DNA of 64,000 nt, from the NCBI GenBank assembly GCA_030141605.1, contig JAQGDQ010000332.1, forward strand, positions 70,001 to 134,000. Direction: 5' to 3'. Each line of letters opens with the position of its first letter. Position 1 is the stretch's first letter. The notes under the pieces were generated by a model. It had not been told where the DNA came from and did no database searches. It saw only the letters and a list, made by a program, of their open reading frames with translations. Origin of the DNA: Tubiluchus corallicola. Its lineage: Eukaryota > Priapulida > Priapulimorpha > Priapulimorphida > Tubiluchidae. Position numbers and translations under genes: made by a program. Below, piece by piece: positions 38,440-62,150 of the stretch.

Positions 38440-38850
38440 GCAATCGCAGTTCTAAATCAATAAACCTTTTCATAGTTTTGTTGTGCGCACGCGCAGTTGC
38501 TGTAGGTCAAAGGTTAAGCGTACCACAGCAACGCGTCATAACTACAACCGCCACGTGACATGTGAGTAAAGCAAAGCCGTCTGCCACATCAGTTTAGTAA
38601 CGTCAGTTGTTTTAGGTAAAGTTTGCCTAATAATGCATAGTCTGTGATTTACTAGCAGGATATTGCTTGAGAACAAGAAAGAATGAATTTTCTGGTTAGC
38701 TATTAAAATATGCTAAAACGCTTACAACAGCTTGGGCTGCGAAGCGTTGTCAAGTGAACACAAATACGTTGTCTGGTACACTTAACCTCTGATACTTTCA
38801 CGATCATCATCAATCGCTGGAACTGTGAAAATACTTATCAACAAGATTAT
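38440..38850 (+). repeat. ~400 bp repeat, copy 1 (inverted partner at 51080-51475)
   Basis: Aligns to the reverse complement of 51080-51475. Landmarks shared in order are GTCAAAGGTTAAG, GTACCACAGCAACGCGTC, ACTACAACCG, CACGTGACATGTG, GTGATTTACTAGCAGGAT, TTGCTTGAGAACAAGAAA and CGATCATC/CGATCTTC. No terminal inverted repeats or target duplications are evident. It covers the 3' end proposed for gene A. Confidence 0.75.
38782..38822 (-). CDS. possible terminal exon 3 of gene A
   Basis: After the acceptor TTTTCACAG (- strand) the phase-1 frame reads PAIDDDRESIRG and stops, in phase with the donor GACAGAG|GTAATT of exon 2. The intron would be only 69 bp, short for this locus. If unspliced, exon 2 reads through to GNFLFLITFI and stops. 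It lies in a repeat whose inverted copy has the same frame open, so exon status is uncertain. Confidence 0.3.
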
Positions 38851-38891
38851 AATGCCACATCATATAAACGTAATTAAAAACAGAAAATTAC

Positions 38892-39071
38892 CTCTGTCTT
38901 GTTTATGCTTCCTTGGACGTGAGTGTCTTCTCGTACCGACGTATACCGGGTGATAATAAACTTTCTGCGTCTGCGGTGCCCTCGTTGTTGTCGTCGTTGT
39001 CGTTGCTGCCGTTGGCTCTTCTGTTGTCGTTGTTGTCGTCGTTGTCGTTGGCTCTTCTGTTGTCGTTGTTA
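38892..39071 (-). CDS. gene A exon 2: Thr-rich linker and basic tail
   Basis: Acceptor TTTTCGTATAG precedes an open phase-1 frame: TTTTEEP, a run of eight Thr, EEPTAA, six more Thr, then RAPQTQKVYYHPVYVG and a basic RRHSRPRKHKQ. It ends at donor GACAGAG|GTAATT. The phase matches the donor that ends exon 1 (41004). Runs of Thr between EEP spacers look like an O-glycosylated mucin-type linker, and the following basic tail could bind acidic polymers; both are inference. The joint with exon 1 needs transcript evidence. Confidence 0.5.
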
Positions 39072-39219
39072 CTATACGAAAAACAAATACATTACGTTAG
39101 TAAGTCTAGTATCGATCGCACAGTTTGTTTTGTTTGTCTGTGATGTGGTTTGCAAAATTTATGTATTAAAATTTAGATTTCATATTTTAGAATTTTATTC
39201 TGCATGTGGTGAATGTGCT

Positions 39220-58199: not shown

Positions 58200-58815
58200 T
58201 AATCTTAAGCAAATCTTAAACTGTAGCTCAAAACAATCTACTCTTTAAGATATTGAAAGGAAACATACTATTTTTCTCAAAAATGACTTACGCAAAAGAA
58301 TTATTACCATGCAAATGCAATTTCGCATACGCGCCAATAGTTCTTCGCTGTTACATGCATTTTGCTACTCGCCAGTTAGGCAGATACTAGCGAATGCATT
58401 TCGAAATTGCGGTGCACAAAAAACAGGTACTGCACCTCTCAGTTCAAAAGTGTTCGTTTGTGACGTAATGCACACGTTAGACAGCTCATTCTTGAGCATT
58501 CAATTTGAGCGGTCAATTTTAAATTTGAATTTTTACCTTAAAACTTGCCTAATTTTAGTACAACACACTAAATATCGTACAGTAGCACTGTACTTCAATT
58601 TTGCAAACACGTGCAACACGCTCGCGGAATGTTTTTGCTGTTGAAAATTGCGTTAGTTTGTGATGTCATCAATAGATGGGCTCGCCCTTCATTAATTACA
58701 GTTTTAATCTACTATTTAATTATCAGAAACGCGTTTGCAGTATTATTGGTATTAAAATCTATACTTTTACCGTACTTGAAAATGGGGTAGTACATATGAA
58801 AAATCATCCTATCTC
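58200..58815 (+). repeat. dispersed ~600 bp repeat, copy 2
   Basis: Direct-orientation partner of 1950-2545 with shared landmarks in the same order and similar spacing. The 111-codon open frame inside it is not conserved in copy 1, which argues against coding. Confidence 0.7.
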
Positions 58816-61445
58816 CCTTTAAGCTGAGAAATAAACAAAAAAATTAGCTAGTACAAGATGTTGATGCTACATAATTATTGCAAACATGCGCAGTACAACA
58901 TACACACGAAACACGCACAATAACTGATCAAAGATTTTGACTCTGATGTAAAAAGCTGCATTCTGCCATCATCAATAACACGTGAATTTTTACAAAATTA
59001 TAGTCCTGCAGCATTATACAGAAATGTATTCGAAAAATTCAAAACTCGTAATAAATCTTGCTTTGTTCTCCACAATTTATTACAGCAGTTTGTAAGATCC
59101 ACGTTTCGCTTTACAAAATAATGGAATTTACTTTTAGGTGATTAACCAACCAACTTACTTTGTAAATGTATTTTTATTTTTACTGAAGTTACTAAAATGT
59201 TGTCTTTATAATGTTTATGTATATGAGTTAATTCATTATCTCCGGATTGTAATTGAGCCAATTGTTTTATCAAATGAAGTGTGATATTTATTGTGATGTC
59301 CTTTATTCTTTTCTTGGCACTTTCTCCTACTTGGCACTTGCACCGTGGAAATACATGTATCAGTCGCAGTCTGTTTTGCAAATTCACTGTATATATGAAG
59401 TTAAACTAAACTAAAGTAACTGCTTAACTAAAAATCTCACTCGTAACTCACAAGTCGCAAACTGCGTGTTCACTGAGTTAGTCAGTCAGCCATTCATACC
59501 ACTTTGTTTAGTAATCAATTAGTAAATCAGATGTGAAATAGAAAAATAGTAAGTTAAACAATCAGTATATATGTCGCTGAGTCAGTCAAAAAAATTAGCG
59601 AGTTAATTAGTTGGTCCAGCAGTTGGTACTTAATCAGCCAATTATTAAGTTTTAATTTTATAATCGCGAATTACCCAGTGGATGAATAATTAATGGATAA
59701 TAATAAAAAATGACTGAATAAAAAACTGATAAGATAGCTTTTAGTTATTATTGACTCACCCAGCTTGTTCAGCGTATCACATGCGATGTCTCGCGATTCT
59801 GGTAGCTCCTATGCAGGTACGCATCCATTTCGCCGTTTGACAGTTCTCTAGTTAAATATCTGTACTTTGTTAATACGTTATTCATAAACAAATTGTTTTT
59901 ACTGGCCAGTGGTATTCGCCACTATTACAGTTCGCGCCAGCGGCACGCTTCGCCAATATTAACATTTGTTTTTTTGTTTTTTTTGTTTGTTTGTTTTTTG
60001 TGCAACTTTTTTATGCTGGTTTAGCCTTCCAACTTCTTTTATTTTTTAGTTTTTTTATTCATGGTATACACGATATATTGTACACGGATATACAATCGAA
60101 ACTGAATTTGACTGTCGACAAAGAAATTGCCAAGAAAGAAAGAGCAACACAGCAAACATTTCTCTCTGTGTCTCTCGTTCTTCTTTATATTTTCGTATTC
60201 TTTCTTTCAGTTTTCTTTCTTCCCCTTTCTTTTTCTGCTCCCCTTCTCTTTCACTGTCTATATTACTGAGGTTTGGCTCCGCACCAATTGCCAGTGCCAT
60301 GGCACAGGCCTTTCTCTTCTGATCTTCAAGATAGTAGAATCTGACATAGGCACTTGACCTGGACTCAAGATCGGTGCTCAGATGACGGCGTATCCCCATA
60401 TACAAGGTCATGACCAGTTTTCTTAAGCCTGTCGGGTGAAAATCTATTTTTTACTGAGACCAACAGACTTTTCAATGTGTTCGTGGATGCATTTCCCGAC
60501 TGCCCGCCCTGTGAGATGCTTTGCCGTATGAAAATTAGGAAAGAGCAAAAGTCAGTTGGGAAACCTTCGACATTGGAACACGTGCGCTTTACCCAGGTTT
60601 CAGGACAATGAGAGGGTGACAGGCTCTCTCGCAACCATACTTTTGTGTTTTACTACTTCAAACACGCACTTGCTTCATTGTCTTCACTGCCGCCCTCAGA
60701 AAACTTCATTGCAATAGCTCATGGGCGTGTTGCGTTGTCTACAGATATGGATCTAGTGACCATTTGCTGGCAGCGGTCAACTGATCCATATATAAAGGCA
60801 CAGATATGAAAAAATCTTTTTAATAACTCAGGGTGAAAAAGAACCACGAAAATTGATGTGCTATTAATAGGTATGCAATTATATCCTAATTTGTGAGTCG
60901 TGGGCCACACAACTTCACGACTCATAGATATGACCTTTTTAAAAGTGACCATTTTTTGTGAATAACTTTTAAATCTTCCCCATATGGGGACACCAAAGCT
61001 TGAATGAAGGTAGTTAATGTCCAGTACGGTGCAACCCTATAACGAATGGGTAAAAGTGGTTAGCAACCTTCATTTGTCAGCTCCCACCACCTTGTAACCA
61101 CATATGTTATAAGTGTGACCAACAAAGGTAGGAATAATGGGCCGTGGCGCTGCAAGTTTTTATAGGTGGCATCTGGGTGACACCTCGTTGGATAGAAATC
61201 GACAGCAGTAGCACCACTGGCCGCCATCTAGGTGGTGCTTCTGTCTTGACTAATAGGGGTAAATTTAAACAACGGCCATTAAATTTTGGCCGTCGTAGAT
61301 CTGATGGGGTGTTCGTCAGGTGATTCCATAAGGGTTTCTTCGAGAGTTATGGCTTCCCTTTTTAGTCATGTACCTTTGTACCATATATTAAGTAAAGTAC
61401 CGACACGAGTTTGGAAAAACGGCCATAGTGTGGAATTATTATAAT
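58816..61445. other. intergenic DNA with a possible decayed ORF
   Basis: On the - strand between 60950 and 60250, three broken frames in series (CPETWVKRTCSNVEGF, then SAYVRFYYLEDQKRKACAM) look like one protein interrupted by frameshifts and stops. I do not recognise it; a dead transposon ORF is possible. A poly-pyrimidine stretch follows at 60160-60260. Confidence 0.3.
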
Positions 61446-61448
61446 GGT

Positions 61449-62150
61449 GGCACACGTCCTGCGACGTCACTCAGCCTTTCATTGATGCTCGTTATTTCTG
61501 CATTCTTATTATCAAGCCTTTCTCGTAGTTTAAATCATCGATTATACTTTGCATTAAGCTCTGCAAAGCTTTTGACTAGGATAAGCCACGTCCGTCTCTC
61601 CGTCTGACTCCACCCAAGTAACTTTTTATTCACTGTTGTTGCAGTTAGCTAAAATCGTTTTAGAACTAGTACAAGCAGTGTTTTAGCGTCGGCAAATTCT
61701 GAATGCCCTTCAGAAGGTCTAAAGCATCAATGGTTAAGTCAGTCGAACCAGGTTACATAGTTTGGATAGCTGATTCTGCTTGAGCGGCAAATTCTGAAAT
61801 TAATTTTGTCATTTTGTCCAGTGCTAATGTCATTTAGATATGTGCAACAACACCAGTCCAGTCTGAATGTTTGTCACAATATTGTCTACGTCATCTACTT
61901 CTTTACGAATTTTTGCAATTGTCCTCTAGGTGCCATTAATCTCGTCTGTGACTACTAAAAAAATTTCTCTAGCTCCAAGTAAAGCTGACATCATCAGCCT
62001 CGCCATTAGCGATTTTCAAATGGCTGCTTACGGTAAAGTGTTTGCGTCTGTTCACGAACTAGGTAAAAATTATTAACTGCACGTTAGATTTTCATAAAGT
62101 GCAAAAAAATCCGCGGTTAGCTTGTTAGACACCGAAGCCGACATACAAAG
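61449..62150 (-). pseudogene. pseudogene D: decayed copy of the gene C core
   Basis: On the - strand, frames broken by stops and indels follow the gene C core from about its YEKL region to past LHEK. RTIAKIRKEVDDVDNIVTN corresponds to the IHKKVDD region, and KLRERLDN with ITSINERLSDV to the LHEK region. Both signature histidines are Arg here. Signal peptide, acidic repeats and the cysteine end are missing. Nucleotide similarity to 52490-53260 is plain over about 650 bp, so D derives from C or its direct ancestor. A LINE fragment follows at 62215. Confidence 0.85.

What the first reader, a model, noticed from the sequence alone, without database searches (positions are those of the whole stretch)
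38782..62150. Cluster of secreted coiled-coil paralogs with a fixed IHxK - LHEK - Cys geometry
Three neighbouring genes on one strand (A, B, C) and a dead fourth copy (D) share a core I cannot assign to any family. Motif IH-x-K-[LFV]-D is followed after 140 (A), 140 (B) and 138 (C) residues by LH-[ES]-K, and after 65, 62 and 65 residues by a cysteine. Sequence between the motifs is very diverged yet length is held almost constant, as in a rod whose length matters. All have signal peptides. This looks like a lineage-specific, tandemly expanded extracellular protein system.
Basis: partly seen in the sequence, partly recalled or inferred. Interest (0 to 1): 0.9.

Follow-up and report, generated by a model that had tools for sequence, protein, structure and literature searches.

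The report
Secreted coiled-coil rod protein family
An animal genome carries a small family of probably secreted proteins that look like very long, nearly unbroken coiled helices ending in one shared cysteine, perhaps building blocks of a secreted material, and their genes share a short DNA word just upstream.

Summary
A, B and C are minus-strand paralogs; D is a broken relative of C. Three more intact single-frame members (E, F, G) lie on two other contigs. What is held constant is heptad register: B fits 43.7 heptads with no register break, E 43.4. The C-terminal cysteine is the only column invariant in all six.

New: TGAATWATT lies 101-153 bases before the ATG in 6 of 6 genes; no other 9-letter word of its kind is common to them, and 0 of 300 shuffled sets had any. 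This suggests shared, POU-like control.

Best reading: co-expressed, cysteine-linked rods of an extracellular material, working like hymenopteran silk or snail egg-capsule proteins but failing tested features of both. Secretion, partners, tissue, material role and clade are inferred or unknown: no animal protein library was available, and the AlphaFold models were poor.

The parts
40975..42003 (-). Gene A, single open frame, 342 aa from the MKL start (an upstream in-frame ATG at 42057 is possible)
   Evidence: paralog of B, C and E
41605..41622 (-). A motif 1, IHTKLD
41191..41202 (-). A motif 3, LHSK, 140 residues (20 heptads) after motif 1
41008..41010 (-). A invariant C-terminal cysteine
42096..42104 (-). 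Upstream element TGAATTATT of A, -101 from the ATG; a splice-acceptor-like sequence (TTTTTCAG) abuts this ATG, so it may be intronic
47903..48895 (-). Gene B, single open frame, 330 aa; 43.7 heptads fitted without a register break
48503..48520 (-). B motif 1, IHEKFD
48356..48373 (-). B motif 2, THEKID, 49 residues (7 heptads) after motif 1
48089..48100 (-). B motif 3, LHEK, 91 residues (13 heptads) after motif 2
47915..47917 (-). B invariant C-terminal cysteine
49023..49031 (-). Upstream element TGAATTATT of B, -136
52431..55343 (-). Gene C, single open frame, 970 aa: signal-like N-terminus, about 610 residues of Ser/Thr- and acid-rich sequence, then the rod
53568..54465 (-). C tandem 132-bp (44-aa) repeats, 6.8 copies, 95% matches
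52434..53432 (-). C rod region used in alignments; register break near its residue 187
53028..53045 (-). C motif 1, IHKKVD
52620..52631 (-). C motif 3, LHEK, 138 residues after motif 1
52437..52439 (-). C invariant C-terminal cysteine
55451..55459 (-). Upstream element of C, -116, palindromic (ATGAATTATTCAT)
61442..61654 (-). D, broken copy related to C, C-terminal piece with stop codons inside
61845..62123 (-). D, broken copy related to C, middle piece with stop codons inside

Best explanation
The genes encode a family of secreted, almost purely helical rod proteins. Each mature chain is about 300 residues of near-continuous heptads with a canonical Ile/Leu/Val core, roughly 45 nm if fully extended (at 0.148 nm per residue, the figure used in a passage of PMC3032785). 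The chains associate side by side in register, as homo- or hetero-oligomers, and a single cysteine close to the C-terminus joins them. C adds a long Ser/Thr-rich acidic stalk with N-glycosylation-type sites. A shared homeodomain/POU-like upstream element probably switches the genes on in one secretory cell type, and the rods are building blocks of a secreted extracellular material (fibre, capsule, tube or gel). Shown: family, heptads, register-locked motifs (A, B, E), invariant Cys, shared upstream word. Inferred: secretion, oligomer, disulphide, co-expression, material role.
For: Six intact members and one broken one in one genome. Best hydropathy period 3.48-3.56 in all six, power 16-33. Register fit with my own simple scores: 0 breaks in B and one, near the N-terminus, in E. 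Motifs at 7 and 13 heptads in both B and E. B and E align at 29% identity with no gap over about 300 columns. End branches of 0.32-1.88 changes per site while the heptads are kept. The Cys is the only invariant column of six. TGAATWATT upstream of 6 of 6 genes, and 0 of 300 shuffle sets with any common word of that kind. Analogy: honeybee silk proteins are small, non-repetitive, divergent paralogs with a conserved coiled-coil length (passages of PMC3032785, and PMC6403662).
Against: No expression, proteomic or structural evidence. The AlphaFold models (mean pLDDT 59.3 for B, 46.0 for A) neither support nor refute a rod and put breaks in the helix. g-e' charge pairing is no better than shuffles. 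F has five register shifts, G three, A two, C one and E one, so only B is unbroken throughout and E apart from its N-terminal end. A chain with one cysteine could also be a monomer or pair with another protein. The upstream word could be a relic of duplication rather than a working site. Nothing in the sequence says 'material' rather than any other secreted rod.
Confidence: 0.5

Rival explanations
1. Soluble secreted rods with no material role: spacers, mucus or seminal or egg-coat components, or carriers that hold partners at fixed distances.
For: Same anatomy. C carries a Ser/Thr- and acid-rich repeat region with 12 N-glycosylation-type sites, more like a mucin-linked component than a fibre subunit.
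Against: No recognisable globular partner-binding domain in A, B or C: the Pfam rows shown are coiled-coil-type or unrelated and all below cut-off.
Confidence: 0.27
2. Helical effector or pore-forming protein: the chain folds back into a helix bundle that rearranges on a membrane.
For: A weak sub-threshold match of B to a bacterial helical toxin-type family (PF05791, E 0.12); the poor AlphaFold model of B has a helix break at residues 191-195.
Against: The register fit of B runs through that break without a shift (local phase 32 to 72 degrees across it), which a hairpin would not need. No long hydrophobic membrane segment beyond the signal was seen by inspection. Sub-threshold coiled-coil matches are non-specific.
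Confidence: 0.08
3. Open frames that are no longer expressed or are decaying copies.
For: D is a clear wreck.
Against: Six open frames of 330-970 codons kept across divergence to 16% identity; the upstream word is kept in the six intact genes, and one search lists no minus-strand copy of it upstream of D within the window.
Confidence: 0.04
4. Unrelated coiled coils that look alike by composition.
For: General libraries give many weak coiled-coil matches; the weakest pair, G with A, is reached by 6 of 200 heptad shuffles and 22 of 200 block shuffles.
Against: E links to each of the other five with 0 of 200 shuffles in both controls; shared Cys, motif register and upstream word.
Confidence: 0.03

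Closest known systems
Coiled-coil silk proteins of bees, ants and hornets (AmelF1-4 and orthologues)
   Same: Small, non-repetitive paralogs dominated by one coiled-coil region, sequences widely diverged but coiled-coil length conserved (passages of PMC3032785, PMC6403662, PMC12284834); a cited title calls the honeybee genes a highly divergent gene cluster (reference list; that paper itself is not held).
   Different: Bee silk cores are alanine-rich, about 210 residues; here Ala is 8-12% of the chain with mainly Ile/Leu/Val at a and d, about 300 residues, and an invariant C-terminal Cys. The host is probably no arthropod (0 matches to the cuticle family PF00379, with no control ringing).
Marine gastropod egg-capsule proteins (ECPs)
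   Same: Heptad coiled-coil rods with hydrophobic a and d positions, used as an elastomer (section 2.5 of the review PMC13052691, passages).
   Different: ECP rods are two or three helical segments with linkers plus head and tail domains; B fits as one unbroken segment. Sequence homology could not be tested: the primary paper PMC3956310 is not held.
Tropomyosin (PF00261)
   Same: About 40 uninterrupted heptads (recalled); weak match in 2 of 6 members, best E 0.0082.
   Different: Tropomyosin is cytosolic (recalled); the similarity is at the level of coiled coils in general.
Silk and glue gene promoters of Bombyx (POU-M1 sites)
   Same: The core ATGAATAA is printed as a POU-M1 site of sericin-1 at about -200 and, under a footnote mark, of sericin-3 at about -70 (table passage of PMC5831788); E and F carry ATGAATAATT on the sense strand and C on the other strand.
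   Different: Resemblance of a short word only; A, B and G do not carry ATGAATAA itself, and the factor that binds here is unknown.

Membership tests
Hymenopteran coiled-coil silk | Alanine-rich coiled-coil core | tested here: not met
   Ala 8-12% of chain; a and d positions mainly I, L, V
Hymenopteran coiled-coil silk | Clustered divergent paralogs with a conserved coiled-coil length | tested here: met
   A, B, C in one cluster, E and F 10 kb apart; outer motif spacing 140, 140, 138, 140 in A, B, C, E; not measurable by exact motif in F and G
Hymenopteran coiled-coil silk | Arthropod host | tested here: inconclusive
   PF00379 0 matches in the own genome, but none of the tool's controls rang; points away from an arthropod
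Hymenopteran coiled-coil silk | Sequence homology to AmelF1-4 | not tested
   no insect protein collection on hand
Gastropod egg-capsule proteins | Rod of two or three helical segments with linkers, head and tail | tested here: not met
   B one segment of 43.7 heptads, E one of 43.4 after a short N-terminal one; A, C, F and G do show breaks
Gastropod egg-capsule proteins | Sequence homology to ECPs | not testable with these tools
   primary sequences not held
Gastropod egg-capsule proteins | Gastropod host | tested here: inconclusive
   mollusc-type haemocyanin domain PF14830 0 matches, no control rang
Any Pfam family | Score above the curated cut-off | tested here: not met
   A (25 of 64 rows shown), B (19 of 19), C (6 of 6): all below cut-off. 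For E, F, G one search prints no cut-offs, so untested there
Family of a solved structure (PDB) | Specific sequence match | tested here: not met
   profile search: 183 sequences up to E 10, 60 shown, best 9.6e-07 to an engineered coiled-coil chimera, then scattered coiled coils; single-sequence search of A best 0.045
Alpha-helical pore-forming proteins | Significant family match | tested here: not met
   PF05791 E 0.12 for B, below cut-off

The most novel reading that the evidence does not exclude
An independently evolved coiled-coil structural-protein system in a non-arthropod animal: several paralogous rods of matching register, one with a mucin-like stalk, locked by C-terminal disulphides and by register-matched HxK sites that could serve as lysine/histidine cross-link points, and all run by one POU-like promoter element.
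Probability: 0.3. Interest if true: 0.75.

Novelty: new variant of a known kind. Interest (0 to 1): 0.5.

Why it matters
If true, it is another animal material built from nearly ideal long coiled coils, outside the insects whose silks define the kind, with natural variants that keep the heptads at 16-30% identity to B. That is a direct test set for what a coiled coil really needs, and a template for designed protein fibres. The shared upstream word gives a handle to find the secreting cell type and the other components.

Tried and rejected
Birth from a 21-bp minisatellite: the genome has long open arrays of 21- or 42-bp units (by inspection of the frames) that match heptad queries, but third codon positions of the six genes show little 21-bp self-similarity beyond other shifts (G most, 0.290 against 0.272), and B and E show no internal repeat beyond register (57 and 238 of 400 controls reach the observed maximum). 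A, C, F and G do show short-shift signals (0, 0, 0 and 2 of 400); all four have register breaks, which this control does not allow for. Rejected, though an ancient origin is not excluded.

Parallel homodimer by g-e' charges: no signal in any of six (lowest C, 43 of 500 shuffles, and B, 48 of 500), with only 2-4 charged pairs a chain.

Structure: AlphaFold of B and A with three-row alignments gave mean pLDDT 59.3 and 46.0. I ran no fold search, because a low-confidence model gives meaningless matches.

Relatives in viruses, bacteria and archaea, with a two-row profile of B and E: 303 and 290 pattern matches, none confirmed by tblastn. PHROGs and NCBIfam gave scattered coiled-coil matches. Rfam and tRNA scans of the window were empty.

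Naming the organism: COX1 search empty, cuticle and haemocyanin domains empty, '343.5 Mb' with 'scaffolds' in 0 papers of the library. Left unnamed.

C's N-terminal region elsewhere in the genome: only itself.
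Full report
What is there. The window is bases 70001-134000 of a 263-kb contig in a 343.5-Mb genome. Three genes on the minus strand read as single open frames: A (342 aa from its MKL start), B (330 aa) and C (970 aa). Each starts with a hydrophobic, signal-like stretch (by inspection). D, upstream of C, is a broken relative of C in two main pieces with stops and a frame change. No family match (E up to 0.01) falls between 38782 and 40975.

Not chance. BLASTP between A-B, A-C and B-C gives E 3e-11, 1e-8 and 7e-6. 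Because coiled coils resemble each other, I used two controls: shuffling residues only within their heptad position, and shuffling seven-residue blocks. Of 15 pairs among six members, 13 were never reached in 200 heptad shuffles and 12 never in 200 block shuffles. The exceptions all involve F or G: F-A 1 and 2, G-A 6 and 22, B-F 0 and 1. E links to the other five at 0 of 200 in both.

A wider family. Searching the own genome with B, E, the C rod, F, G and A gave three more intact frames: E (C1209, 347 aa), F (C1209, 342 aa, about 10 kb from E) and G (C775, 352 aa). E is B's best match (E-value 1.7e-36). These counts are lower bounds, as the tool says. Of the other weak hits, those I read on C42, C1714, C1765, C1088 and C1508 are arrays of 21- or 42-bp units by inspection, and C1464 looks bacterial. 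Four weak hits (C2085, C659, C99, C20; E 0.007-0.08) I did not read. In a maximum-likelihood tree only F with G is well supported (97/95). End branches run from 0.32 (E) to 1.88 (A), so A's and C's places are unsure.

What holds the length. The best hydropathy period is 3.48-3.56 residues in all six, with power 29 in B and 33 in E, 16-20 in the rest. A register fit with my own simple scores and a penalty for shifts finds none in B over 43.7 heptads, and one in E near its N-terminus, leaving 43.4 unbroken. A has two shifts, C one, G three, F five. The HxK motif occurs three times in B and E, at intervals of 49 and 91 residues, that is 7 and 13 heptads; E has a further IHSD in the same register between the last two. 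A keeps the outer pair (140). G keeps a variant pair (IHKD, MHDQ) at 91; F has only AHSA and LQGK. In C the interval is 138 and the phase breaks between the motifs. B and E align at 29% identity with no gap over about 300 columns. So the constant length looks like a constraint on register more than on distance as such. The cysteine near the C-terminus is the only column invariant in six. With the L of LHxK at position d, H falls at e and K at g.

The C stalk. Before its rod, C has about 610 residues after the signal. The whole stretch of 638 residues, signal included, has 30% Ser/Thr, 18% Asp/Glu, 11 Lys/Arg and 12 N-glycosylation-type sites. It includes 6.8 copies of a 44-residue repeat. A search with 230 residues of its non-repeated part found no relative elsewhere in the genome.

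A shared upstream word. In the 350 bases before the start codons, TGAATWATT occurs on the sense strand in 6 of 6 genes, at -101 (A), -136 (B), -116 (C), -153 (E), -140 (F) and -131 (G). The window's own density, these copies included, predicts about 0.025 per 350 bases of one strand. An open search for any 9-letter word with at most one two-letter position found this word alone in all six, and 0 of 300 sets of dinucleotide-preserving shuffles held any. Of 25 copies in the window and eight neighbouring 10-kb pieces (both strands, three palindromes thus counted twice), the six upstream of these genes are the only ones followed within 40-260 bases by a start codon with 100 or more open codons; one other is followed by 94. 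These pieces were chosen because they hold or flank the genes. GTGACA lies 176-190 bases before the start in A, B, F and G. TATA-like words lie at -82 in F and -76 in G; B has one at -15, and A, B, F and G have others beyond -300; C and E have none by this pattern on the sense strand. The word resembles POU-factor sites: a review table prints ATGAATAA as a POU-M1 site in the silkworm sericin-1 promoter (PMC5831788, passages). Limits: no transcription start is known; A has a splice-acceptor-like sequence right before its ATG; a word kept from a common ancestor cannot by itself prove present use.

How it probably works. Shown: a family of long heptad proteins with a shared cysteine and upstream word, and shared motif register in A, B and E. 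Inferred: the chains are secreted, coil around each other in register, are joined by the terminal cysteine, are made in one cell type, and form or line a secreted material. Core residues are mixed Ile, Leu and Val at a and d, which does not fix the number of strands, and g-e' charges do not help.

Comparison. For A, B and C the Pfam scores shown are all below cut-off; for the other members one search prints no cut-offs. PDB, NCBIfam and PHROGs return scattered coiled coils. No relative was confirmed in viral or prokaryotic collections. The nearest known way of working is hymenopteran silk: small, non-repetitive, diverged paralogs with a conserved coiled-coil length (passages of PMC3032785, PMC6403662 and PMC12284834). 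It is not filed as a member: the core is not alanine-rich, and the genome shows no arthropod cuticle domain (a weak negative). Gastropod egg-capsule proteins (review PMC13052691, section 2.5 passages) also share the principle but have two or three segments; homology could not be tested. The library searches (20 of 2,323 papers listed; 2; 5; 3; 12 of 45; 0) listed no paper whose title or abstract start described this family; they are word searches of open-licence papers and prove little.

Verdict. A real, well-ordered, probably secreted rod family with a shared upstream element; the function as a material is the most likely of several readings. Host clade and spread remain unknown.

Noticed in passing
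window 39220-39681 and 40003-40306: A 462-base TC array, and an interspersed repeat matched at 41 other places in the genome at 72-85% identity (a lower bound; 40 of 1,468 candidates scored).
   Followed up: partly
window 45039-45107 and 46584-46727: Two 21-bp tandem arrays between A and B; by inspection, long open arrays of 21- or 42-bp units on C42, C1714, C1765, C1088 and C1508 mimic heptads.
   Followed up: partly
window 22885-24132 (-): Single open frame with F-box and FIST domains, FBXO22-like (the name is recalled).
   Followed up: no
window 7244-8515 (+): Long open frame ending in a RING-variant (MARCH-type) domain.
   Followed up: no
window 4707-5060 (-): By inspection the first exon of a histone H4 gene, which then leaves the H4 sequence as at an intron; Pfam gave no match to the whole frame.
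   Followed up: no
window 25743-26126 (-): Frame with a PHD-finger match above cut-off, perhaps part of a retroelement (the second part is a guess).
   Followed up: no
window 32134-32433 (+): Exon of an NDUFB8-like complex I subunit.
   Followed up: no
L027 (G000:C1464:6206-6718 region): Contig stretch with bacterial-looking frames (uracil-DNA glycosylase-like and phage-tail-like by inspection): contaminant or symbiont.
   Followed up: no
L016:3030-3476 (-) and L017:2706-3023 (+): Two other short signal-peptide-like exons beside gene E, not hit by the six family queries; no copy of the shared word lies just before them.
   Followed up: partly
L041:5376-5711 (+): C-type-lectin-like exon near gene F, below the Pfam cut-off.
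   Followed up: no
L015:2990-3538 (+): By inspection an exon of a GABA-B-receptor-like gene beyond the right end of the window; no Pfam match to the frame.
   Followed up: no
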